Source: Elusimicrobiaceae bacterium (GTDB lineage Bacteria; Elusimicrobiota; Elusimicrobia; Elusimicrobiales; Elusimicrobiaceae). Taken from it: a stretch of 45,111 nucleotides of DNA. The stretch covers positions 1 to 45,111 of the forward strand of contig JAFXVA010000005.1 of assembly GCA_017534965.1 (NCBI GenBank), written 5' to 3'. The notes beneath the pieces were generated by a model that made no database searches, was not told where the DNA came from, and saw only the letters and a list, made by a program, of their open reading frames with translations. This document shows positions 16,577 to 30,832 of this stretch, one piece after another. Numbering within the stretch: position 1 is the stretch's first letter; each line of letters opens with the position of its first letter. A program made the translations under genes and the position numbers.

Positions 16577-17029
16577 TTATAAAACGTTTTTTAAGGAAAT
16601 TTCCGGTAAAGGACAATCTTTTAAATCTAAATTTACAGCCGGTGCACTATCATCTTTTTGTGCTTTGCCGTCAACCAAGAAGTAATATTTATATTCACCT
16701 TTTGGCAAAAATAAAGTTTTACTAAAAAGGTCATCAGATATTTTTTCAAGAGATAAAGGATTTTTGTTCCACGCCGTAAAATCGGCGCACAAAAGCACTT
16801 CGCTTGCGTCTTTAGCACTAAAATTAAATTTAACTTTTGTAAAAGAAACTTCTTGCTTGGTGTTAACCTCAAGCAATTTTTGTGTTTCGCTTTTGGCAAT
16901 TAAAGAAGGGTTTGCCTTAGAAGTAAAATCAAAAAAATCGGCACAGGCATTAAGCCCGGCAAAAACAAAAAATATCAAAGCCGCTATATAAAAGAAAAGT
17001 GAAAAGAAACTTATACCTTTACATTTCAT
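16577..17029 (-). CDS. small exported protein with CBM48/AMPK-beta-type E-set domain
   Basis: The 150-aa protein has an N-terminal hydrophobic segment (FFSLFFYIAALIFFVFAGLNAC) that may be a lipoprotein signal, though Asn at -2 is unusual. Residues of about 62-125 resemble the AMPK1/CBM48 glycogen-binding E-set domain: VKFNFSAKDASEVLLCADFT, AWNKNPLSLEKISDDLFSKT, LPKGEYKYYFLVDGK. That fold binds glucan chains in other proteins, but here it is alone and exported. It overlaps the radical SAM gene upstream by 11 bases and precedes tsaE, so it is co-transcribed with genes of unrelated function. The actual ligand is unknown. Confidence 0.78.
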   Translation of the reverse strand: MKCKGISFFSLFFYIAALIFFVFAGLNACADFFDFTSKANPSLIAKSETQKLLEVNTKQEVSFTKVKFNFSAKDASEVLLCADFTAWNKNPLSLEKISDDLFSKTLFLPKGEYKYYFLVDGKAQKDDSAPAVNLDLKDCPLPEISLKNVL

Positions 17030-17636
17030 TTATAAACTCCCTTATTCTTAATTTTGCGCCTAAATCTTGAGCAAGTTTTTTAGTTTTTTCAACATCAATA
17101 TTTTGTTTATCTACGATAGAAACAATAGTGCTTACCTTTGGCGCACAGGCACGCACAAAATCAAGCATAGCTTGGTAACCTTGCGCGGCATATTCCGGCT
17201 TTGGGCGAACAATCTTTTGCCACTCTTGCGCGTTTGGTGAATTTAAACTGATAGAAACTTCATCAATATTTTTAGCCAAATCGCCTGATATATCACGCCC
17301 GTTAACAAGACTGCCAAGCCCTATCGTATTTAAACGCAGTTTAATTTTCGGATAAAGTTTTTTTATTTTTTCGGCTGTTTCAAGCAAAACTTTTAGACGC
17401 ATAGTTGGCTCGCCATAACCGCAAAAAACAATTTCTTTGACGGGATTTTGCTGCATTTCCTTTTTTAAAGCGGTTATAACTTCATCAGCAGTCGGCTCCT
17501 GCCCGCACAAGTTTAAATCGTATTTATCAAAACGCATAGCAAATTTCGTTTTAATACAAAACACGCAGGAGTTAGGACACCTGTTAGTAAGATTGATATA
17601 AAGCGCCTGATTAAAACGATACACTATTTGTTTCAT
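17019..17636 (-). CDS. radical SAM protein (TatD-linked type)
   Basis: The start is set at ATG 17636, six bases after a TATAAT, giving 205 aa; a longer TTG-started frame would begin upstream of that promoter. The product contains the SAM-cluster motif C-PNS-C-VF-C within INLTNRCPNSCVFCI, the GE motif CGYGEPTMR and later strand motifs LRLNTIGLGSLVNGRDI and VSISLNSPNAQEW. It matches short radical SAM proteins annotated as TatD-linked, whose reaction is not established. No tatD is adjacent here. It is the first gene of the tsa operon. Confidence 0.87.
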   Translation of the reverse strand: MKQIVYRFNQALYINLTNRCPNSCVFCIKTKFAMRFDKYDLNLCGQEPTADEVITALKKEMQQNPVKEIVFCGYGEPTMRLKVLLETAEKIKKLYPKIKLRLNTIGLGSLVNGRDISGDLAKNIDEVSISLNSPNAQEWQKIVRPKPEYAAQGYQAMLDFVRACAPKVSTIVSIVDKQNIDVEKTKKLAQDLGAKLRIREFINEM

Positions 17637-17642
17637 ATATTT

Positions 17643-17651
17643 ATTATAGCA
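17643..17651 (-). promoter_or_regulatory. extended -10 promoter for the tsa operon, probably leaderless
   Basis: On the minus strand 17651-17643 reads TGCTATAAT, an extended -10 element. Its last base is 6 bases from the ATG at 17636, so transcription should begin at or next to the start codon. No -35 hexamer or ribosome site is recognisable. Confidence 0.6.
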
Positions 17652-17698
17652 TTTAGAGTCTATAGCGCGCGCAGGTTTTATAGTTTTTAATAATTTGA

Positions 17699-17704
17699 TA
17701 TAAT
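17699..17704 (+). promoter_or_regulatory. -10 element of the tRNA-Ser promoter
   Basis: TATAAT at 17699-17704 is 24 bases upstream of the mature tRNA 5' end. The -35 region (around 17676-17681, TTTTAT) is poor. A start point near 17711 would give a leader of about 18 bases for RNase P removal. Confidence 0.5.
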
Positions 17705-17728
17705 TTAGATACAACCCGTTTTTAATTA

Positions 17729-18914: not shown

Positions 18915-20146
18915 TTATTCACCGCGGAACAAAAGAAATTGGCGGTTCTTGCCTAGAAATAGCACAAAACCATACGCATATTTTATTTGATTTCGGTTTG
19001 CCATTATCTTCTATGACAGAAGAAAAAGAAAATAAAAAATACCGCCTAAATATCCCAGGAATTTATAAAGATAGCAAACAAAAAAATACAAAAATTAAAG
19101 TTGTTTTTATTACCCACGCTCACCCGGACCATTATGGTCTTTTAAGCGAAATTTCGCCTAAAATACCAATTTATTTAAGCAGGGCAACTTATAATTTAAT
19201 TACAAAAATTGCACCGCTTATTAAAGAAAACCATATAAAAAATCTTAATTTTAAAATTATTAAATCTAATGAAGAAATAATTATTAATAAAATAAAAATA
19301 CAAGCCCTTGCCGTTGATCATAGCGCCCCTGAAGCCCTTGCTTATAAAATAACAATAAACAATAAAACTTTAGTATATAGTGGCGATTTGCGCGCCTATG
19401 GATATAATGCTTATAAAACAGAAAACTTTATTAAACAAGCAAAAAATGCCGATTATTTAATTTTGGAAGGCACAACACTTGGCAGGCAGCAAAAGCCCCC
19501 CTTTTTAGAGAAAGATTTAACAAAACTATTAGAAAAAGAATTTAGCAAAAATAAACTTAATTTAATTTACTTTTCCTCTCAAAATTTAGATAGATTTGTT
19601 TCCGTCTATAAAGCTGTGCGCAAAACAAAAAAGATTTTGGTAATAGATCCTTATACTTGTGCTGTTTTGGAAAATTTAAAAACTCTTAGCAAAAATATTC
19701 CGCAATATTTTTGGCAAGATATCCGTATCTATTTTGCAAACAATAAACAAACTGCGAAATTAGATAACAAAATATTTACTTATAAGAAACAAAAAATTAC
19801 TTTAAAAGAAATTTTAGAAAATCCTAATAATTTTGTTCTAAAAGCCAATTTTAATATAACACAAAAAGTTATAAAAAATATAAAAAATATCAATTTAATT
19901 CATAGTGCTTGGCAAGGTTATCTTACGGAAGATAATATTTTTATTAAAATTGCAAAAAAACACAATTTAAAAATAAAACAAATTCACACTTCCGGACATG
20001 CTGATATTAAAACTTTACAAAAAATAGTTCAAGGTATAAATCCAAAACAAATTATTCCAATTCATACAGAATTTACCAAAAAATATAAAAAATTTTTTGG
20101 TGATAAAATCACACTATTAAAAGATGAACAAATTTTACCTATATAA
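18887..20146 (+). CDS. beta-CASP-type metallo-beta-lactamase hydrolase, probable nuclease
   Basis: The 419-aa protein has the metallo-beta-lactamase motif THAHPDH (H77-x-H79-x-D81-H82), a later metal ligand in VDHSAPEAL (about 143), Asp in YSGDLRAYG (about 166) and the C-terminal SGHADIKTL and IIPIHTE motifs. A roughly 180-residue insert between the Asp and the SGHA motif is arranged as in beta-CASP nucleases such as RNase J and CPSF-type enzymes, which cut RNA or DNA. It is shorter than RNase J (about 550 aa) and lacks its C-terminal domain. It starts inside the upstream PD-(D/E)XK-like gene in another frame, so the two are coupled. Its 3' end overlaps the convergent gene by 8 bases. Confidence 0.85.
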   Translation: MAKLENNFLIIHRGTKEIGGSCLEIAQNHTHILFDFGLPLSSMTEEKENKKYRLNIPGIYKDSKQKNTKIKVVFITHAHPDHYGLLSEISPKIPIYLSRATYNLITKIAPLIKENHIKNLNFKIIKSNEEIIINKIKIQALAVDHSAPEALAYKITINNKTLVYSGDLRAYGYNAYKTENFIKQAKNADYLILEGTTLGRQQKPPFLEKDLTKLLEKEFSKNKLNLIYFSSQNLDRFVSVYKAVRKTKKILVIDPYTCAVLENLKTLSKNIPQYFWQDIRIYFANNKQTAKLDNKIFTYKKQKITLKEILENPNNFVLKANFNITQKVIKNIKNINLIHSAWQGYLTEDNIFIKIAKKHNLKIKQIHTSGHADIKTLQKIVQGINPKQIIPIHTEFTKKYKKFFGDKITLLKDEQILPI

Positions 20147-20597
20147 TCTTATTTTCTTGTAAATATTTTTCTAAAATTTCAGCGGCATTTTTAACTTTAT
20201 CAGCGCAAGGCCTTTTGGCATAATATTGGGCTGTTCTTTCTTGTGGAATTGGGCTGCTTGGCCCTTCTGAAAGTCCCAAAAGTTCACGACAAATAATTGA
20301 GCCGTTTTCTTTCTTAAACTCTTGGCAAATTTCTTGCACGCGAGCATAAAATTTTGCTTTTTCTGCGTGATTTGTTGGGTCTTTAGGGGCATATTTTAAA
20401 GATAAAGCCATACACATTGCACTAACCGCCCCGCAGACTTCTCTTTGACGGCCAAGTCCACCCCCAAAACAGGCAGAAAGTTTTAAAGCTGTTTCCTTAT
20501 CAATATCAAGCTCTTTTGCAAAGGTGCAAAAAACTGCTTGCGCGCAATTATATCCGTTTAAAAAAAGTTCTTTTGCTTGTTCACATTTATTTGTCAT
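20139..20597 (-). CDS. C_GCAxxG_C_C family protein
   Basis: The 152-aa protein carries the name-giving motif: GYNCAQAVF (about 15-23), SACFGGGLGRQREVCGAVSAM (about 41-61) and a later Cys in IICRELLG. Members are small Cys-rich proteins thought to be redox-active or metal-binding, often with an N-terminal or adjacent membrane partner; the reaction is not known. It is the last gene of the lipid-type operon, one base after the stop of the membrane methyltransferase-like gene. It might supply electrons or metal to the radical SAM enzyme upstream, which is a guess from context. Confidence 0.88.
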   Translation of the reverse strand: MTNKCEQAKELFLNGYNCAQAVFCTFAKELDIDKETALKLSACFGGGLGRQREVCGAVSAMCMALSLKYAPKDPTNHAEKAKFYARVQEICQEFKKENGSIICRELLGLSEGPSSPIPQERTAQYYAKRPCADKVKNAAEILEKYLQENKII

Positions 20598-20598
20598 T

Positions 20599-21600
20599 TT
20601 ATTCCTTATTAATTTTACATGTTCCTTTTGAAGTTAAACAATATTTTTTAAATAATTTAAAACAGGGGCATCCGTGATATTTTTCATAAACTAGCATACA
20701 GGGGCAATTCCATTTTAAGCCATATAAACACATCGCCACAATCACATAGAAAAAATAAAAGAAAACATGGTGTATATAAAGCCCTAAAAGGCCAAAAACA
20801 AACAACATCCCTGATTTAGAGCGATAAGAAAAAGCTGTTTTTTCCGGTTTTAAACTATATCCTAAATATAAATGAATAAACACAAGTCCGCCAAGCACGC
20901 TTAAATTAATTTGATGTGTAGCTGTAAAATAAAATAAAGTCAGTGCTATAATTAATCGCACTAAAACACTCCAAATACCCGATAGCGTAAGACTTAACAT
21001 ACGAACATTGTTTTGATAGAAAGTATAATCAGAATTTTTTTGAAGCAACAATTTTTCTTCTGCTTTAGCCCGTTTATACATTAAGGGCAAAAATACGACA
21101 CTGACAAAAACAAGAGTAAAGGCATTGGCAACTAATAAACTTGCGCTCCAACACCATAATAAAAGGGAGGCATACATCGGATGCCTTGCCAAAGCATAAG
21201 CACCGGTAGTTTGTAAGGGATGCTTTTCCTTAATTTCTATATTATCAGACCATAAACACCCTATATTAAATTTAGCCCACAGATGCCATATTGTGGAAAA
21301 TACCACACCTATGCATCCAACTATAAAGAAGAAATATTGTGCCATAAGCGGTAAATCTGCCTGCCCCCAAGAAGCAATCCAACAAGGGAAAAGTAATAAA
21401 ACTAAAAGCAACATTTCTTTGGTAGAAAAAAAATGTTTTTTTTGCTTTTCAAGTTTTTGTAATTTCAAATGATGTTCGTAAAATTTCCATACTACCGCAG
21501 CTAAAAGAATTACACCTGTTATATAAACAAGTATAATTCCTATCAAAAATAAATGAGGATTTTGCGCCTTTTCACTTGCCTGCAACAACCAATTTATCAT
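20599..21600 (-). CDS. membrane methyltransferase-like protein (ICMT/PEMT family) with Cys-rich tail
   Basis: The start at ATG 21600 has GGAGG 7 bases upstream; a longer GTG frame to 21666 lies within the upstream gene. The 333-aa product is a multi-pass membrane protein. At about 130-165 it has the isoprenylcysteine/phospholipid methyltransferase signature (KEKHPLQTTGAYALARHPMY), where RHPxY is the diagnostic core. After more membrane segments there is a short Cys-rich tail (CPCMLVYEKYHGCPCFKLFKKYC) seen in ferredoxin-thioredoxin-reductase-like or metal-binding ends. ICMT/PEMT enzymes methylate lipids or prenylated proteins at membranes using SAM. It overlaps the Lgt-like gene by 29 bases. 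The substrate is unknown. Confidence 0.8.
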   Translation of the reverse strand: MINWLLQASEKAQNPHLFLIGIILVYITGVILLAAVVWKFYEHHLKLQKLEKQKKHFFSTKEMLLLVLLLFPCWIASWGQADLPLMAQYFFFIVGCIGVVFSTIWHLWAKFNIGCLWSDNIEIKEKHPLQTTGAYALARHPMYASLLLWCWSASLLVANAFTLVFVSVVFLPLMYKRAKAEEKLLLQKNSDYTFYQNNVRMLSLTLSGIWSVLVRLIIALTLFYFTATHQINLSVLGGLVFIHLYLGYSLKPEKTAFSYRSKSGMLFVFGLLGLYIHHVFFYFFYVIVAMCLYGLKWNCPCMLVYEKYHGCPCFKLFKKYCLTSKGTCKINKE

Positions 21601-22207
21601 CTTTACGCCTCCAAATAATAAAAACACATATCGGAATAAATAAAATAGCCAACCATTGATATACACTTAAATTTGCAAATACTCGCGGTTCTATTCTCCA
21701 AAATTCAATTACAAAACGCATCAATAAATAGGAAAGCAAATAAATAGGAAATAATAAATCCGCTCTTTGTATTTTAAGGTAAAATAAATATAAACTTATT
21801 GCCATGATAAATTGAAATACACTTTCTATTAATTGCACGGGAATAAAAAGAGTTCCCCCGCAACATCCGTTTAAATAACATCCTATTTTACCAAAACCGA
21901 CTGCAACAGCTAATGGAATAACAAACCTTCCGCCAAAACCGCCCTTATTACCGCTACATTTTTTATATAAATTTATTGCCAAAAATGCGCCAAGAATTCC
22001 ACCCATCACACTTTTGCCTTGAATAATAAAACCATGCAGGCCATAGGAAAGCCATATAGGCACTTTTGCCCCTAAAATAGTTCCTATAAAAGCACTTACA
22101 TAAATAGGAAAGCGCACTTTTTCAGGCGGGCGCGGCATTTTTAATTTCCAAGCGACCAAAGCACCTACAATTATACCGATAAGCGAGAATAAAACATATG
22201 CAAACAT
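21572..22207 (-). CDS. Lgt-like (prolipoprotein diacylglyceryl transferase family) protein
   Basis: The 211-aa protein is a multi-pass membrane protein related to Lgt: a Gly-rich membrane core (GKSVMGGILGAFLAINLYKK), the signature-like GKIGCYLNGCCGG, and PVQLIESVFQF, equivalent to the PSQLYE segment of Lgt. True Lgt enzymes are usually 260 aa or more, so this is a short, divergent member. Lgt moves diacylglyceryl from phosphatidylglycerol to a Cys thiol. Given its operon with a Tes-like radical SAM enzyme and a membrane methyltransferase, it may use a lipid in a different reaction, and I would not name it lgt. Confidence 0.8.
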   Translation of the reverse strand: MFAYVLFSLIGIIVGALVAWKLKMPRPPEKVRFPIYVSAFIGTILGAKVPIWLSYGLHGFIIQGKSVMGGILGAFLAINLYKKCSGNKGGFGGRFVIPLAVAVGFGKIGCYLNGCCGGTLFIPVQLIESVFQFIMAISLYLFYLKIQRADLLFPIYLLSYLLMRFVIEFWRIEPRVFANLSVYQWLAILFIPICVFIIWRRKDDKLVVAGK

Positions 22208-22211
22208 ATTA

Positions 22212-22427
22212 TTAAAGCGATACTAAACCTAAACAAGTTATAAAAAACAAAAATGGAATTGCTATTACTATCCCAATTATTATTAAAAAGATAATACCAA
22301 CTGTTACCCAAACAGAACGAGGTTTAGGTTCAGTTGAAGAAGTTTGTTCTGTTCCTTTCTGATTTTCAACTTGATTTAGAACTTGTGGTGATTCTTGTTT
22401 GGTTGAATCTTTATTATTTTCTACCAT
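22212..22427 (-). CDS. 71-aa tail-anchored membrane protein of unknown function
   Basis: The first 38 residues are polar and low in complexity (Asn, Gln, Glu, Thr, Pro), followed by one long hydrophobic segment (VTVGIIFLIIIGIVIAIPFLFF) and a very short tail. A good ribosome site (AAGGAG) precedes the ATG, and its ATG overlaps the stop of the radical SAM gene (ATGGTAG). No family is recognisable. It may anchor or regulate the neighbouring membrane enzymes. Confidence 0.75.
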   Translation of the reverse strand: MVENNKDSTKQESPQVLNQVENQKGTEQTSSTEPKPRSVWVTVGIIFLIIIGIVIAIPFLFFITCLGLVSL

Positions 22428-23740
22428 GTTATCTCCTTTTTTAAAGCATTATGAACACAAAATGGAATAACTTTGCCGTTGCCAATACTTACTCCCGTGC
22501 AACATTTTTGAGCGCGTTGCCAATCAAAAGTATCTGCGTCCATAAAATTTTTAACTATAATACGAACTATTTTCATATCTTTATGACAAGAGCCATCCCC
22601 TTGTGCAAATTCTTGCAGTTTTTCAAGCATAAAATTGCTCCCCAAAACCCGCCCGACGAAGCATTTACACACATTTTTTTTCATATAGTCTAAAATCGTT
22701 TTATCAAATGCTATACGATTAGAAATTTGTGTTTTACATTTAGAATAATCAACATAATCGCCCAAAGAATAAACTTTATCGCCTTGACAAAATAAAAAGC
22801 CCAAACTTGTGCAATTTTCGTGCGAACAAGGCAGAGGTATTAAATCTTTATACTTCATATATTCGCTACCTGCGATAGCTAATAGAATATCTTCCTGTAA
22901 GACGGAGGCAATAGCCGTTCCTACGGCACTACCAACCTTTGTTAATCGCTGAAAAGTAATACCGGAAATATGTTTTAAATCAACAGCTAATTTTAAAATG
23001 GCAGGTATTTCTTTTAAATTACCTTGATAAACCGTAACAGCCAAACATATTTTTATTTCGGCTTTATTTAAGAGATTTAAAATTTTTTGTTTTTTAGATA
23101 ACAAAGCTTTACCACGCAATATTTTATAAACCTCATCATCAAAACCATCAAATTGTAAATAAATTTCCACTCTGTCTTTGTGTTGCTTAATAAATTCAAA
23201 AATACTTGTATCGGAAAGTAAATTAAGGCCGTTTGTATTAATTAAAATACGCCCAATATCTGCTTTTAATGCTTCCTGTAAGATTTCCTTAAATTGAGGA
23301 TGCAACAAACATTCCCCCCCGCTAATTTGTAAAACATCTAAATGGCCTTGTTCAACTTTAAGTAATGTTTGTAAGCGAGCTTTAAATTCCGCTACAGAAA
23401 TATAATGCTGTTCTTTTTTACCGAAATAACAAATAGGACAAGACAAATTACAGGCATCAGTTATCTCTATAAGTCCTGTGCAAATATGTTGTTTATGCTC
23501 CTCACACCAACCGCAATCTTGTCCGCAATTACCTTTAAATTTTGTAACTGCTTTAAAAGGTTTACCCTCTACATCATAGGTTTTATCAAAAAAGCGCTTT
23601 GCATCTTTTGCGATTTTAACCAAAAAATCTCCATGTAACGGACATTTTTTCTCTAGCCACACTTCCGCCCCTTTTTTTACTTTTAGTGCCGGAATCGTCT
23701 TTAAACATTTTGGACATAGAGATTCTGTTTTTTGTTTCAT
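22421..23740 (-). CDS. Tes/MJ0619-like radical SAM enzyme, candidate lipid-coupling enzyme
   Basis: The 439-aa protein has an N-terminal Cys module (C9, C12, C33-PLHG; then C72, C76, C79, C87), the radical SAM motif C97-NLS-C101-PI-C104, the GGE motif ISGGECLLHPQF and many C-terminal Cys, ending FMDADTFDWQRAQKC...GKVIPFCVHN. That ending closely follows the C-terminal motif of archaeal MJ0619/Tes, which couples two phytanyl chains to make tetraether lipids and uses several Fe-S clusters. Bacterial homologues exist with mostly untested roles. Here it follows a phospholipid acylation fusion by 3 bases and precedes an Lgt-like gene, so a membrane-lipid substrate is likely. An alternative is another radical SAM C-C bond-forming or methylating reaction. 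Confidence 0.85.
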   Translation of the reverse strand: MKQKTESLCPKCLKTIPALKVKKGAEVWLEKKCPLHGDFLVKIAKDAKRFFDKTYDVEGKPFKAVTKFKGNCGQDCGWCEEHKQHICTGLIEITDACNLSCPICYFGKKEQHYISVAEFKARLQTLLKVEQGHLDVLQISGGECLLHPQFKEILQEALKADIGRILINTNGLNLLSDTSIFEFIKQHKDRVEIYLQFDGFDDEVYKILRGKALLSKKQKILNLLNKAEIKICLAVTVYQGNLKEIPAILKLAVDLKHISGITFQRLTKVGSAVGTAIASVLQEDILLAIAGSEYMKYKDLIPLPCSHENCTSLGFLFCQGDKVYSLGDYVDYSKCKTQISNRIAFDKTILDYMKKNVCKCFVGRVLGSNFMLEKLQEFAQGDGSCHKDMKIVRIIVKNFMDADTFDWQRAQKCCTGVSIGNGKVIPFCVHNALKKEITW

Positions 23741-23743
23741 ATA

Positions 23744-26700
23744 TTATTTTTCCTTATTTTTATAAATCATTTCTTTAAGTTTGACATAATCTATTTTGCC
23801 TGTTCCCATTAAAGGTATTTCTTCGGTAATAATAATTTTTTTGGGAACGGCAAGTTCGCTAAGGCCACTGGCTTTAAAATCTGCAACAATATCACTACGT
23901 TTGGCATCTTTGTTAGTGGTAAACAAAATAAGTTGCTCGCCTTTTCTTTCATCAGGAATATTTACAACTGCATTCATTTTGCTAGGCCAAAGAGCATTGA
24001 TTTGGGTTTCTACGGCAGTTAAGGAAATCATTTCCCCTGCAATTTTGGCAAAGCGTTTTGCACGACCAAGGATAAAAACAAATCCGTCTTCATCAATACG
24101 CACAATATCGCCGGTATCATACCACCCCTCTTTAGGGGCCTCTAAAACACCGGGCGCACTATCACGCACATAGCCGGCCATAATATTACCCCCTTTAACA
24201 AGGAGTTTGCCCCCTTCTTCAACACCGGGTATTTTTTCAAGTTTATATTGAATACCAGGCAAAAGACGGCCCACACTGCCCCGTTTAAAGAACATTGAGG
24301 TATTAACCGCAAGAACAGGAGAAGTTTCCGTCGCACCATACCCTTCCATAATACGCAAACCAAATTGGTCATAATATTTTTGGATAGTTTCTTCTTTTAA
24401 TTTTTCTGCACCCACAACCGCTAAACGAACGGAGTAAAAATCATAAGGGTGCGCCATTTTTGCATAGCCATTAAAAAAGGTATCCGTTCCAAAAATAATA
24501 GTAGCATTTCTATCATAAATAAGTTCTGGCACAATTCTATAATGTAAAGGCGATGGATAGAAAAACACTTCAGCCCCACTTAAAATAGGCAAAAGAGTGC
24601 CAACGGTTAAACCAAAAGAATGGAAAATCGGCATAGCATTAAAAACTCTATCTCTTATACCAAAATCAAGAACACTTTTAAGCTGTAAGCAATTTGACTG
24701 AATATTTTCGTGGGTTAAAACAACTCCTTTTGGTGTGCCTTCGCTACCGGAAGTAAATAAAATTACCGCAGGATCTTTTGAAGTTACTTTACCTCTTATT
24801 TTTTTATAATAATGATGCGGGAAGTAGGAAGCAATAAAACCTGTTATTTTATCTAAAAATGTAATTTGTTTTTTAAGATCTTCCAGATAAATTAACTTTA
24901 GGCCTGCTTCTTTAAGAGCTTTTGCCGTTTCCAGCAAACCAGCTTGCGCTAAAAAAACTTTAGAGGTATAAATGTTTTTTATTTTAGCCGCTTTTGTGCA
25001 GGCAAGCATATTTTTTATACCTACGGAAAAATTTAACATACAAGGCGTAATATTAAAAGCCCTCATAGCAAAAAAAGCAACCACGCTAGAAGACATTGTC
25101 GGCATTAAAAGCCCCGCTTTACTGCCCGATTTTTGATATTTCGCAATTTGTTTGCCAAGCACAAAAACGGCTGTTAAAAATTGACCGAAAGTAAGAGGTT
25201 TAAAAGTAACATCATTTACAATTCTTTTTTGACGACCGACAAGTTCATAAGCATCTAAAAGAGTATCAAATAAAGTTTCGTGAATATTACCTGCCTCATA
25301 TTTCATATTTGCCATAAGATCATAAAGAGCTCTTGAAGTAGCTAAACGGCGTGCTTTACCTTTAATATTCTTTTTAATTTTTAAAACTTTCGGTGGTAAA
25401 ATTGTTATAGTAATTTTACTTTGTGGGCGTGTTTTTAATTGTGTGCCAAAACGCGAAAATAAAGAATATTGGCTACCTTCCAAATAAATAGGCAAAAGTT
25501 GTGCATCACTTTTATCTGCAATCATAGCAGGGCCTGGATAAATCTTCATCAAAGCACCTGTTGTTGTTATGCGCCCTTCCGGAAAAATCACCACCCTTTT
25601 ACCACTTTTAACTTCCTCAATAATAGATTTAACGGCCATCGGGTTTGTCGGGTCAATAGGAAAATATTTTACTAAGTGTAAGAAAGGTCTAACCCACCAC
25701 TTTTTGCTTACATGGGTATCTATAGCAAAATATAAACTACTAGGAATATAGACCCATAATAAAACAGCATCTAAAAATGAGGTATGGTTTGCAATTATAA
25801 GGACATTTCCTTTTAAATTCTTATAATTTTCAAGACCTATCACTTTTACGCCGTAAATAAAATTCAAAACGCGAGTCATAATCATACGAATAATGTGATG
25901 TGGTAAAAGCAAACAAATATAAATTGCAGCAAGCGCATTTACGCAAGCAATAACAGCAAAAACTGCAGGAATCGTCCAATGTAAAGCCAAAAGTAAAGCA
26001 CAAGCACCACAACCAAGAACCATAAATAAAGAATTAACAATATTATTTGTAGCAATCACGCGGGAACGCGTTTTCTCACTTGCTAAAAATTGAAGCATAG
26101 CATTTAAAGGCACAATATAAAGACCGCTGCATATAGCAAAACCAAGAATATCTATAGTAATACGTTTACCGGCAAAAGTGCTGAGAAAAGTTTTATAACT
26201 TATTGGCTCTATTGTAGAAATATAACCATTAGTTGCTAAAGCAAGATCCACTAAAAATACAGTCATTAAAAGGGCACTTATAGGCACATATTTGCTTGTA
26301 ATTTCCCCTTTAACTAAAAATTGACAAAGGACTGAACCTATTCCTATACCGCAGGAAAATAAAACATATAAAAAGGCAAGCAAATATTCATCCCCGTTTA
26401 AAATATTTTTTGCCAAAGCCGGCATTTGCCCGATTAAAGAAGTCCCTAACATCCAAAATAAAGAAATACCTAAAATACATAAAAAGATATCGTGATTTTG
26501 TTTGGCAAAGGACATATTTTTCCAAGTGCTACGCAAAAAATTTATATCAACTTTTAACTTGGGATTTGTGGCTTTTTGACGAGGAATAAATAAACTTGTC
26601 AAAAGCCCTAGGATTGCAGTTATCAAAATAACCAGCGGTAAAAATTTATCATTTAAAATAAAAGTATGTCCCAAAATATTTATTTGATTACTAGCAATAA

Positions 26701-27199
26701 CCAAAACGCCAAATATGATACCTTGTAAAACAGCCCCGTAAGTTCCCGCTTCTATAAGGCCATTACCTGCAATAAGTTGTTTTTTATTTAAAATATCCGG
26801 CAAAATACTATATTTTACAGGACCAAAGAAAGTAGATTGTGTCCCCATTAAAAAAAGAACAAATAAAAGCAAAGATATATTTGTTGTTAAGAAACCAAAA
26901 CCGGCAAGCAAAGCAATTAATACTTCGGCCAATTTGGCAATTTTAATTAATTTATCTTTGCTAAATTTATCGGCAAGTTCACCTGCTATGGCGGAAAACA
27001 AAAAATATGGCAACATAAACAAAGCCACCGCCAAAGAAGTTACAACAGGTTTACTTTCAGCACTCATGGTTACAACTTTATAAGTAACAAAAGTCGCTAG
27101 GGCATTACGAAAAAAATTATCGTTAAAAGCACCTAAATACTGAGTGCAAAATAAAGAAAAGAAAGCACGATTAAAAAAAGTTTTAAGTAGGGATAGCAT
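23744..27199 (-). CDS. LplT-PlsC-acyl-AMP ligase triple fusion (Aas type)
   Basis: This 1151-aa protein joins three units. Residues 1 to about 430 are an MFS transporter of the LplT lysophospholipid-flippase type (CTQYLGAFNDNFFRNA near the start). About 440-640 is a PlsC/1-acyl-glycerophosphate-type acyltransferase with an intact HX4D motif (H472-TSFL-D477) and FPEGRITTTG. About 680-1150 is an acyl-AMP ligase with FTSGSEGTPKG (about 811), YGATETSP, WYDTGDIVRIDEDG and the Lys motif GTGKIDY. E. coli Aas plus LplT performs uptake and re-acylation of lysophospholipids, so this one polypeptide could import, activate and acylate. The gene is 3 bases after marR and leads the lipid operon. Confidence 0.93.
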   Translation of the reverse strand: MLSLLKTFFNRAFFSLFCTQYLGAFNDNFFRNALATFVTYKVVTMSAESKPVVTSLAVALFMLPYFLFSAIAGELADKFSKDKLIKIAKLAEVLIALLAGFGFLTTNISLLLFVLFLMGTQSTFFGPVKYSILPDILNKKQLIAGNGLIEAGTYGAVLQGIIFGVLVIASNQINILGHTFILNDKFLPLVILITAILGLLTSLFIPRQKATNPKLKVDINFLRSTWKNMSFAKQNHDIFLCILGISLFWMLGTSLIGQMPALAKNILNGDEYLLAFLYVLFSCGIGIGSVLCQFLVKGEITSKYVPISALLMTVFLVDLALATNGYISTIEPISYKTFLSTFAGKRITIDILGFAICSGLYIVPLNAMLQFLASEKTRSRVIATNNIVNSLFMVLGCGACALLLALHWTIPAVFAVIACVNALAAIYICLLLPHHIIRMIMTRVLNFIYGVKVIGLENYKNLKGNVLIIANHTSFLDAVLLWVYIPSSLYFAIDTHVSKKWWVRPFLHLVKYFPIDPTNPMAVKSIIEEVKSGKRVVIFPEGRITTTGALMKIYPGPAMIADKSDAQLLPIYLEGSQYSLFSRFGTQLKTRPQSKITITILPPKVLKIKKNIKGKARRLATSRALYDLMANMKYEAGNIHETLFDTLLDAYELVGRQKRIVNDVTFKPLTFGQFLTAVFVLGKQIAKYQKSGSKAGLLMPTMSSSVVAFFAMRAFNITPCMLNFSVGIKNMLACTKAAKIKNIYTSKVFLAQAGLLETAKALKEAGLKLIYLEDLKKQITFLDKITGFIASYFPHHYYKKIRGKVTSKDPAVILFTSGSEGTPKGVVLTHENIQSNCLQLKSVLDFGIRDRVFNAMPIFHSFGLTVGTLLPILSGAEVFFYPSPLHYRIVPELIYDRNATIIFGTDTFFNGYAKMAHPYDFYSVRLAVVGAEKLKEETIQKYYDQFGLRIMEGYGATETSPVLAVNTSMFFKRGSVGRLLPGIQYKLEKIPGVEEGGKLLVKGGNIMAGYVRDSAPGVLEAPKEGWYDTGDIVRIDEDGFVFILGRAKRFAKIAGEMISLTAVETQINALWPSKMNAVVNIPDERKGEQLILFTTNKDAKRSDIVADFKASGLSELAVPKKIIITEEIPLMGTGKIDYVKLKEMIYKNKEK

Positions 27200-27848: not shown

Positions 27849-28472
27849 ATGTCTTATTCCCAAGGGACTAAACTACAAGATAAAATTTCACAAGAAATTA
27901 TTGATTGTGTAAGTAAAATGGTCTATAAGGAAGGTTCAACAGGTATAAGTGTCCGCTCTGTATTAAAAGAACTTCATATTACTAACCGCGTTTTTTATAA
28001 CAGATTCAAAAATATTGATGAGGTTTTGTTAATCATCTCTCAAAGAATTGTTAAAGAAATGCGCCAAAGCATTTTAACCCCTTATGATGAAAAACACAAC
28101 TACCATCAATATATAATAAACATAGCAACAAATGTGCTGGTAAAAACTTACGAAGTAAAAAATAACTTTAGTGATTATATGTTTATTAGTGATATTTTAA
28201 ATAAAGTAAATAAAGAATGGTGGGTAGAACATATTGTTGTTATTTTAAATTACGGAGTAAAAAACGGCTTTTTAAAACCTGTAAATACTGAAGATATTAG
28301 TTATGCTATTTGGTGTTTCTGCAGGGGTTTTAATGTGGATGCTATTAAAGGAAAGCTAGACTTAAATGAAGCTTTAAAAATCTTTAAGGTTGCTTTTACG
28401 GCCTTTATTGACGGACTTACTTTAAATAAAGACCCTCGTCCGCTTTTAAAAACAAAAGGGAAAAATATATAA
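27849..28472 (+). CDS. TetR/AcrR-family regulator
   Basis: The 207-aa protein has an N-terminal TetR helix-turn-helix (ISVRSVLKELHITNRVFYNRFKNIDEVLLII, about 36-66) and an all-helical ligand domain of typical size. It is divergent from marR and lies 14 bases before the second PlsC-ligase gene, which it probably controls. The perfect palindrome at 27803-27819 is the likely binding site. The ligand is unknown; acyl-CoA or fatty-acid ligands are common for TetR regulators next to lipid genes. Confidence 0.88.
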   Translation: MSYSQGTKLQDKISQEIIDCVSKMVYKEGSTGISVRSVLKELHITNRVFYNRFKNIDEVLLIISQRIVKEMRQSILTPYDEKHNYHQYIINIATNVLVKTYEVKNNFSDYMFISDILNKVNKEWWVEHIVVILNYGVKNGFLKPVNTEDISYAIWCFCRGFNVDAIKGKLDLNEALKIFKVAFTAFIDGLTLNKDPRPLLKTKGKNI

Positions 28473-28486
28473 ATTAAGGAAAAATT

Positions 28487-30832
28487 ATGAAAAATTTAAC
28501 AAACTTATTTTGCAGTAAAAATTTAATAACCATTGGAATACTTGCATTAGCAAGCATCATTATCCTGTGGGGGTTCGGTGTTGAACTTACAAAGGCCTGC
28601 AGTATTATTATACTGGCTTTAGCAGTGTTAATCGGTGCTTTATGGATTCATCACCCGGAAAGAATGGTCCGCTCTTTAGTTTATACTTATTTAAACTTGT
28701 TCTATAATATTAAAATTAAAGGTAAAGAAAACTTTAAAAAAGCAAAAGGGGCAACCTTAATTATTGCAAATAATAACTCTTTCTTAGACCCTTTAATCTT
28801 AGCTACCTATTTACCTAAAGATGTTATGTTCCTTGTAGATAGCAATATCGCAAAACGCTTTTGGGTGCGCCAGGCCTTAAAATTTGTAAACCACTTAGCC
28901 GTTGATAATACAAATCCTATGGCCTTAAAAACCATTTTAAATGAACTTAAAAAAGGCAAAAAAATTGTGCTTTTCCCAGAAGGCAGAATGAACACCGTTG
29001 GCGGTATTATGAAAATTTATAAAGGCCCTGCTATGCTTGCAGAAAAATCCGGCGCACAAATTTTGCCTATTTATATTCAAAACACTCAATATAGCAGATT
29101 TTCTTACTTCGGCAGAAAATTAAGACATCGCCCACACTTACACTTTATTGTTTCCGTATGGCCACCGCGCGAATGGGATTTTGACCAAAATAAACCCACC
29201 CAAGAAGGTCGCAAATACGGCTATGCAGAAGATAAAATTTTTGACCTTTTAAATGAAATGCGCATGAGCAGTTTTGATACCGATTGCACCCTTTTTGAAG
29301 CTATGCTTGAAGGTTCTAAACTTGCAAGAAAAAAATCCCGCGCTTTAGAAGATGCAACCCGCAAACCGGCAAGTTTTAGAAAACTTATTATTGCCTCTTT
29401 CTTACTCGGTAAAAAATTTGCGAAGATGACAAAAGAAGGCGAGTATGTCGGCGTAATGCTTCCTAACTTAAATGTAACGGTGTTTACAATTTTTGGTCTT
29501 TTTGCTTATGGCAGAGTTGTTGCAATGATAAACTTTACTTCAGGTAAAAGAAATGTAATTTCCGCCGTTAGAGCAGCAAAAATTAAAAAAGTTATTACCT
29601 CTAAAGCTTTTATTGAAAAAATGCAATTTGACTTTTTAATAGAAGCTTTAAAAGAAGAAAAAATTAAAATTATTTATTTGGAAGATATTAATGAAACCGT
29701 TAATATTATTGATAAACTTGGTGCTGTTGTAAAGAGTTTGGCACCTAACTTCTTCCACGATAAATACACAAAAAATCAAACGGCAGATTCCCCCGCAGTT
29801 GTTTTATATACCAGCGGTTCTGAAGGAACCCCTAAAGGTGTTGTTTTAAGCCATAGAAACTTAAATATTAACCGCTATCAATTAACCGGTGCTTTATTCT
29901 TAGATTTTAGAGATAAATTCTTTAATGCCTTACCGATGTTCCATAGTTTTGGGCTTGGTATCGGAACAATAGCTCCGCTTTTGATGGGGGCTTCTACCTT
30001 CCTTTATCCAACCCCTTTACACTATAAAGTTATTCCTGAACTTATTTATGATAGAAACGCAACTATCGCTTTTGGAACAGATACTTTCTTTAATGCTTAT
30101 TGTAAAAATGCCCATCCGTTTGATTTCTACTCTTTAAGATATGCAGGTGTCGGCGGGGAAAAATTAAAAGATGAAACCTTTAAGGTTTGCTCTGAAAAAA
30201 TGGGGGTTAGACTTGTTGAAGGTTACGGCGCAACGGAATGTTCCCCCCTTATTGCAGTGGATACACAACTTTATTTTAAACGCGGCACTGTTGGCAGATT
30301 ATTGCCCGGTATGGAATGTAAAATAAAGAAAATTGAAGGCGTTGAAAAAGGCGGAGAGCTTATCTTGAAAGGCGGAAACCTTATGCTTGGTTATTTAAGA
30401 GAAAATAACCCCGGTGTAATTGAGCCCTTAAAAAACGGCTGGTATGAAACAGGGGATATTGTGGAAATTGATGAACAGGGCTTTATTTCAATTAAAGGCA
30501 GAGCAAAAAGATTTGCCAAAATTGCCGGCGAAATGGTTTCTTTAACTTCTGTAGAACAGGCCTTAAAAGAAATCTGGCCAGAATATGAACACGCTGTTTT
30601 AAGACTGCCCGATGCTAAACGCGGTGAACAACTTTTTGCTTACACTACCAATCCAAAACCGGATATGCAACAATTACAGGAAGGGTTTAAAAAACTTGGT
30701 TATAGTGAACTTTGGACGCCTAAAACAGTTAAGCACTTAGAAGAAATTCTTTTGACCGGAACCGGCAAATATGACTATATTAAAATGGAAGAAAAAGCCA
30801 AAGCAGAACTGGCTAAAACAGCGAAAGCATAA
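28487..30832 (+). CDS. PlsC-like/acyl-AMP ligase fusion with altered HX4D motif
   Basis: The 781-aa protein is a paralogue of the 1151-aa fusion at 23744-27199 but lacks the transporter, keeping only two N-terminal membrane segments (about 12-55) that align with the last part of it. In the acyltransferase domain (about 70-260) the catalytic His of HX4D is Asn: NNNSFLD, N96 with D101, whereas the paralogue reads NHTSFLD. The FPEGRMNTVG motif remains. The ligase domain (about 300-775) is intact: YTSGSEGTPKG, GYGATECSPL, WYETGDIVEIDEQG and GTGKYDY. It may work mainly as an acyl-ACP or acyl-CoA ligase. It is co-transcribed with tetR and ends before a strong terminator. Confidence 0.92.
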   Translation: MKNLTNLFCSKNLITIGILALASIIILWGFGVELTKACSIIILALAVLIGALWIHHPERMVRSLVYTYLNLFYNIKIKGKENFKKAKGATLIIANNNSFLDPLILATYLPKDVMFLVDSNIAKRFWVRQALKFVNHLAVDNTNPMALKTILNELKKGKKIVLFPEGRMNTVGGIMKIYKGPAMLAEKSGAQILPIYIQNTQYSRFSYFGRKLRHRPHLHFIVSVWPPREWDFDQNKPTQEGRKYGYAEDKIFDLLNEMRMSSFDTDCTLFEAMLEGSKLARKKSRALEDATRKPASFRKLIIASFLLGKKFAKMTKEGEYVGVMLPNLNVTVFTIFGLFAYGRVVAMINFTSGKRNVISAVRAAKIKKVITSKAFIEKMQFDFLIEALKEEKIKIIYLEDINETVNIIDKLGAVVKSLAPNFFHDKYTKNQTADSPAVVLYTSGSEGTPKGVVLSHRNLNINRYQLTGALFLDFRDKFFNALPMFHSFGLGIGTIAPLLMGASTFLYPTPLHYKVIPELIYDRNATIAFGTDTFFNAYCKNAHPFDFYSLRYAGVGGEKLKDETFKVCSEKMGVRLVEGYGATECSPLIAVDTQLYFKRGTVGRLLPGMECKIKKIEGVEKGGELILKGGNLMLGYLRENNPGVIEPLKNGWYETGDIVEIDEQGFISIKGRAKRFAKIAGEMVSLTSVEQALKEIWPEYEHAVLRLPDAKRGEQLFAYTTNPKPDMQQLQEGFKKLGYSELWTPKTVKHLEEILLTGTGKYDYIKMEEKAKAELAKTAKA

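What the first reader, a model, noticed from the sequence alone, without database searches (positions are those of the whole stretch)
22421..23740. Bacterial Tes/MJ0619-like radical SAM enzyme beside phospholipid acylation genes
The protein combines N-terminal C9/C12/C33-HG and C72-C87 Cys sets, CxxxCxxC at 97-104, and a C-terminal FMD...R...C...G..IPFC.HN segment that follows the pattern of archaeal tetraether synthase. Tes acts on isoprenoid tails; here the neighbours suggest a fatty-acyl substrate, so it could be a bacterial tail-coupling enzyme.
Basis: partly seen in the sequence, partly recalled or inferred. Interest (0 to 1): 0.72.

Follow-up and report, generated by a model that had tools for sequence, protein, structure and literature searches.

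The report
Radical-SAM/Lgt-like membrane gene cassette
The gene encodes a real but divergent bacterial relative of the archaeal enzyme that joins membrane-lipid tails; it belongs to a small, portable gene set with an altered lipoprotein-making enzyme (Lgt-like), a membrane methyltransferase and a tiny membrane protein with one fixed cysteine, a set I found described nowhere and whose product is unknown.

Summary
It is not Tes: it scores below the Tes and TrsS cut-offs and fits TrsS better; Tes-invariant Met439 and Tyr459 are K397 and V417; the stretch before the C-terminal domain is shorter and not recognisable. The phospholipid-acylation neighbour is a landing site: it occurs in 42 of 120 relatives, mostly without this gene, and in a sister genome a hydrolase gene sits where this cassette does.

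All occur in every locus with enough DNA (Elusimicrobiota, Alphaproteobacteria), are present or absent together in 120 relatives, and the small protein is fused to the rSAM in two species. Ten of 11 distant bacterial Tes-like rSAMs also adjoin an Lgt-like gene, most with small Cys membrane proteins. Most likely it performs radical chemistry on a lipid chain at, or attached to, the small protein. No biochemistry exists.

The parts
22421..23740 (-). rSAM: Tes/TrsS-related radical SAM protein, 439 aa; rubredoxin-like site C9/C12/C33/H36, N-cluster C72/C76/C79/H82, RS cluster C97/C101/C104, C-terminal C413/C414/C428, further invariant C305/C310/C318/C358/C360
22212..22427 (-). small membrane protein, 71 aa, hydrophilic N-terminus, one predicted helix, conserved Cys in IPFLFFITC; start overlaps the rSAM stop by 7 nt, AGGAG at 22437-22433
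   Evidence: dN/dS about 0.13-0.55 in pairs; fused in frame to the rSAM C-terminus in L020 and L028
21572..22207 (-). Lgt-like membrane protein, 211 aa (PF01790), GFGKIGCYLNGCCGG; no residue equivalent to catalytic His/Tyr103; one separate canonical Lgt in the same genome
20599..21600 (-). ICMT/PEMT-like membrane methyltransferase (RHPMY, EE) with a C-terminal extension NCPCM..YEKYHGCPCF; start taken at 21600 by comparison with relatives (ORF open to 21666)
20601..23768 (.). footprint of the cassette: replaced by an 816-bp alpha/beta-hydrolase gene in sister genome G013, whose flanks match the window at 97% and 83%
23744..27199 (-). LplT-Aas fusion (MFS + acyltransferase + acyl-ACP ligase): neighbour, not a conserved part

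Best explanation
The gene is the radical-SAM component of a portable membrane-associated cassette. SHOWN: the rSAM has the Tes/TrsS architecture; it co-occurs and neighbours with a small Cys-bearing membrane protein, a second Lgt-like protein and an ICMT-like membrane protein; these are gained and lost as a block. INFERRED: the small protein holds the rSAM at the membrane (it is fused to the rSAM in two species) and carries its conserved Cys in a loosely lipobox-like position near one end of a helix; the Lgt-like protein binds phospholipid and either transfers a lipid to that Cys or presents a chain; the rSAM abstracts H from a lipid chain, as Tes does, and forms a C-S or C-C bond, giving a Cys-linked or cross-linked lipid; the ICMT-like protein methylates the product or a thiol. 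It works like Tes (radical chemistry on a hydrophobic chain) without being Tes.
For: Fold: 7tol/7tom TM 0.75-0.77, next best about 0.40; metal-site residues conserved. Cassette: rSAM, small ORF, Lgt-like and ICMT-like in every locus with enough downstream DNA. Phylogenetic profile: G000 plus the same ten of 120 relatives carry rSAM, cassette Lgt-like (E below 1e-80) and ICMT-like; the others carry none. Block replacement in G013. Small-protein fusion and purifying selection. Lgt fold, nearest E. coli Lgt 5azb, TM 0.65. Ten of 11 distant bacterial Tes-like rSAMs adjoin an Lgt-like gene, most with small membrane-Cys ORFs such as LPLLFMGSC, IPFLLVGGC, IPSGAC, LLPGFC, GVCTG.
Against: No biochemistry. 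The Lgt-like protein lacks the catalytic His (Met/Leu) and has Lys for Arg143, so diacylglyceryl transfer is doubtful. A fused small protein fits an anchor or carrier better than a released substrate. The lipid pocket of Tes is not recognisable (middle stretch shorter, unaligned) and the model is low-confidence in the cluster loops and C-terminus. The topology of the small protein is a prediction from charge and hydrophobicity. The motif resembles a lipobox only loosely.
Confidence: 0.42

Rival explanations
1. The rSAM modifies the small protein itself (for example a thioether or C-C crosslink at the conserved Cys), a RiPP-like membrane peptide system in which the Lgt-like and ICMT-like proteins lipidate and methylate the product.
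For: Small ORF next to the rSAM, often in tandem copies; one strictly kept Cys; SkfB (a RiPP maturase) is the next solved relative by sequence and fold.
Against: No peptide-binding leader domain found by Pfam; the fold is Tes-like end to end; the Cys lies in a hydrophobic helix away from a soluble active site; fusion to the enzyme is unusual for a released peptide.
Confidence: 0.2
2. Bulk membrane-spanning lipid synthase: joins fatty-acyl tails of ordinary phospholipids; the other genes are accessory.
For: Tes fold; Tes binds bacterial phospholipids (PMC9433317); bacterial Tes homologues were proposed for brGDGTs (PMC8941075).
Against: Tes-invariant Met439/Tyr459 replaced (although single variants M439A and Y459F/L of Tes remain active), middle stretch shorter, TrsS closer; Mss is the proposed bacterial membrane-spanning lipid synthase; Lgt-like and small Cys protein are unexplained; the acylation neighbour is incidental.
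Confidence: 0.18
3. Sulfur, metal or organometallic chemistry at the membrane, as TrsS-type systems are suspected to do; the many Cys residues (rSAM, GCYLNGCC, CPC..CPC, small protein) form a thiol or metal relay.
For: Closest curated model is TrsS; Cys-rich partners conserved; DUF4395 and thiol-redox genes in some related loci.
Against: No metal transporter or known cofactor gene is conserved; the C_GCAxxG neighbour is in 52 of 120 relatives regardless of the cassette; GC..GCC also occurs in the canonical Lgt of Elusimicrobia.
Confidence: 0.15

Closest known systems
TrsS, radical SAM (seleno)protein (NCBIfam NF045646)
   Same: End-to-end match, 243 bits, residues 3-432
   Different: Below the 490-bit cut-off; no function for TrsS was found in the papers I could read; this cassette has Lgt-like, ICMT-like and small Cys proteins
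Tes / GDGT-MAS, MJ0619 (PDB 7tol, 7tom; NF045702)
   Same: Fold TM 0.75-0.77; rubredoxin-like, N-cluster and RS-cluster ligands, CC and PFC motifs
   Different: 182 bits against 450; Met439 to Lys397, Tyr459 to Val417; 120 instead of 158 residues between core and C-terminal domain; different genomic partners
Lgt, prolipoprotein diacylglyceryl transferase (PF01790, PDB 5azb)
   Same: Family and fold; Arg239 and Glu243 equivalents kept
   Different: No His/Tyr103 equivalent, Lys for Arg143; genomes have a separate canonical Lgt
Bacterial Mss (membrane-spanning lipid synthase)
   Same: Described as Tes-like in architecture (PMC13274423)
   Different: Not compared here by sequence

Membership tests
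Tes (tetraether lipid synthase) | Passes curated NF045702 cut-off (450 bits) | tested here: not met
   182 bits
Tes (tetraether lipid synthase) | Ligands of the rubredoxin-like site, N-terminal cluster and RS cluster (C9/C12/C33/H36; C73/C77/C80/His; CX3CX2C) | tested here: met
   Aligned and invariant in 22 homologues
Tes (tetraether lipid synthase) | C-terminal [Fe4S4] cluster | tested here: inconclusive
   CC and PFC motifs aligned and invariant, but the exact ligand list in Tes was not available to me and the model is weak there
Tes (tetraether lipid synthase) | Met439 and Tyr459, completely conserved in 1,000 archaeal homologues | tested here: not met
   K397 invariant in 22 of 22; V417 (V/I). 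Single variants at either site keep activity in Tes
Tes (tetraether lipid synthase) | Overall Tes fold | tested here: met
   TM 0.75-0.77, pTM 0.80, mean pLDDT 72.6
Tes (tetraether lipid synthase) | Two lipid-sized hydrophobic channels | tested here: inconclusive
   Model weak in the relevant loops, coordinates not inspected; middle stretch shorter and unaligned
Tes (tetraether lipid synthase) | Joins two lipid tails | not testable with these tools
   needs enzymology or lipidomics
TrsS | Passes NF045646 cut-off (490 bits) | tested here: not met
   243 bits, full length
Lgt | PF01790 family and Lgt fold | tested here: met
   68.5 bits over cut-off 24.9; 5azb TM 0.65
Lgt | Catalytic His103 (Tyr in elusimicrobial Lgt) and Arg143 | tested here: not met
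   Met/Leu and Lys in cassette proteins; roles of the residues from general knowledge

The most novel reading that the evidence does not exclude
Many bacterial Tes homologues are not membrane-spanning-lipid synthases but parts of an undescribed system that covalently couples a lipid chain, by radical chemistry, to a cysteine of a dedicated small membrane protein, with a re-purposed Lgt: a new kind of protein lipidation.
Probability: 0.2. Interest if true: 0.9.

Novelty: new variant of a known kind. Interest (0 to 1): 0.62.

Why it matters
Bacterial Tes homologues have been proposed as makers of branched tetraethers, which are used as palaeoclimate markers. If ten of 11 bacterial homologues examined sit beside a second Lgt-like gene and usually small Cys membrane proteins, a Tes-like hit alone should not be read as evidence for membrane-spanning lipids, and the cassette gives concrete partners to test. 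It occurs in a cultured species, Rhizomicrobium electricum DSM 21034.

Tried and rejected
Acylation-gene context as a clue: rejected. C_GCAxxG neighbour as a cassette member, suggested by TrsS-type clusters as I remember them: rejected. Pfam assignment of the small protein and of the ICMT C-terminal extension (DUF4395 suspected because a DUF4395 gene adjoins ICMT in L092): no hit. GC..GCC in the Lgt-like protein as a diagnostic novelty: rejected, it is also in canonical elusimicrobial Lgt. Literature for such an operon: none found in the open library; the paper that named TrsS is not held. Tree with archaeal Tes: not possible, no full Tes sequence was reachable; in the tree built, distant rows have long branches and their places are unsure.

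Full report
OBSERVATION. The ORF lies on the minus strand, 22421-23740, 439 aa. HMMER finds PF04055 and PF23545 (HMPTM zinc ribbon), and the best solved relative is M. jannaschii Tes, E 1.4e-43. C9, C12, C33 and H36 have exactly the Tes numbering; C72/C76/C79 and H82 align with the Tes N-cluster ligands. In 22 homologues these residues are invariant.

NOT TES. The curated Tes model gives 182 bits (cut-off 450) and aligns only model positions 1-274 plus the C-terminal motif; TrsS gives 243 bits (cut-off 490) end to end. Met439 and Tyr459, reported as completely conserved in 1,000 archaeal Tes, are K397 and V417 here. Single variants at these sites keep Tes activity, so this argues for a different subfamily, not against radical lipid chemistry. 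Between the core and the C-terminal domain there are 120 residues against 158 in Tes (from the alignment ends). The AlphaFold model (22 sequences, mean pLDDT 72.6, pTM 0.80) matches 7tol/7tom over the whole length with TM 0.75-0.77; all other structures listed reach about 0.40 or less normalised by the query. The cluster loops and C-terminus are poorly modelled, so lipid channels could not be judged.

THE UNIT. In relatives the rSAM is always followed by an Lgt-like and an ICMT-like gene wherever the contig is long enough, in gut Elusimicrobiaceae, two environmental Elusimicrobia, rumen, fen and other Alphaproteobacteria including Rhizomicrobium electricum, and one MAG labelled Kiritimatiellae. 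Between rSAM and Lgt-like lies a small gene in one or two copies, which in the window is 22212-22427 with its start overlapping the rSAM stop and a good Shine-Dalgarno sequence. The proteins share a hydrophobic helix with one conserved Cys (IPFLFFITC, IPVVLFGTC, LPVLFVGTC); pairwise dN is well below dS. In L020 and L028, two related species, the small protein is fused in frame to the rSAM. Of 120 relatives, ten plus G000 have the rSAM; the same genomes, and no others, have the cassette Lgt-like protein (E below 1e-80; three weak hits at about 1e-21 lie elsewhere in G002, G004 and G010) and the ICMT-like protein. These genomes are related, so they are not independent events, but presence is patchy within genera.

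NEIGHBOURS. LplT-Aas is found in 42 of 120 relatives and C_GCAxxG in 52, mostly without the cassette. In sister genome G013 the same site, with flanks 97% and 83% identical, holds an alpha/beta-hydrolase gene in place of 20601-23768. The cassette therefore moves as a block and the acylation gene is its landing site. The rSAM tree groups gut Elusimicrobiaceae with Alphaproteobacteria apart from environmental Elusimicrobia (support 93/97, below the starred level), which suggests transfer between phyla.

WIDER PATTERN. Among 11 more distant bacterial Tes-like rSAMs (28-41% identity; Elusimicrobiota, Bacteroidota, Actinomycetota, Alphaproteobacteria) ten have an Lgt-like gene close by; the exception, M. 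vanbaalenii, and three haloarchaea have a soluble methyltransferase instead. Two still more distant rSAMs (L095, L096; about 26% over part of the length) have no Lgt-like gene near. Small membrane ORFs with a Cys near the end of a helix adjoin L092, L093, L094, L105, L107, L108 and L109; none was found by my filter for L103, L110 or L111, although L110 has two annotated hypothetical genes in the same places.

LGT-LIKE. Each of six tested genomes has one canonical Lgt and one cassette Lgt-like protein. The model has the Lgt fold (5azb TM 0.65). His/Tyr103 is replaced by Met, Leu or others and Arg143 by Lys in the cassette family, while Arg239 and Glu243 equivalents remain (residue roles from general knowledge).

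MECHANISM AND LIMITS. The best reading is radical chemistry on a lipid chain at the membrane with the small protein as anchor, carrier or acceptor. Everything beyond homology, linkage, co-occurrence, fusion and selection is inference. No paper describing such a gene set was found in the open library searched; that library is incomplete.

Noticed in passing
27849-30832 and G000:C36:27786-31202: The genome carries three Aas-type enzymes: LplT-Aas in the window, a second acyltransferase-ligase beside a TetR-type gene, and another LplT-Aas elsewhere (46% identical).
   Followed up: partly
20139-20597: C_GCAxxG_C_C redox protein next to the cassette; common in relatives with or without it.
   Followed up: yes
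L114:6159-6974 (G013): An alpha/beta-hydrolase gene occupies the cassette's site in a sister genome; another alpha/beta-hydrolase gene also lies downstream of the L092 cassette.
   Followed up: partly
G061:C19:123557-123676: Orphan 46-aa open frame matching only the CPC..CPCF end of the ICMT-like protein, away from the cassette.
   Followed up: no
L104:3326-8366 (Mycolicibacterium vanbaalenii plasmid): Tes/TrsS-like rSAM with a soluble methyltransferase, a thioredoxin-like protein, CcdA and a second rSAM: a different, thiol-redox type of neighbourhood.
   Followed up: no
L034: A MAG labelled Kiritimatiellae carries the alphaproteobacterial-type cassette: transfer or misbinning.
   Followed up: no
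17019-17714: Second, short radical-SAM protein (231 aa) near tsaE/tsaB-like genes.
   Followed up: no
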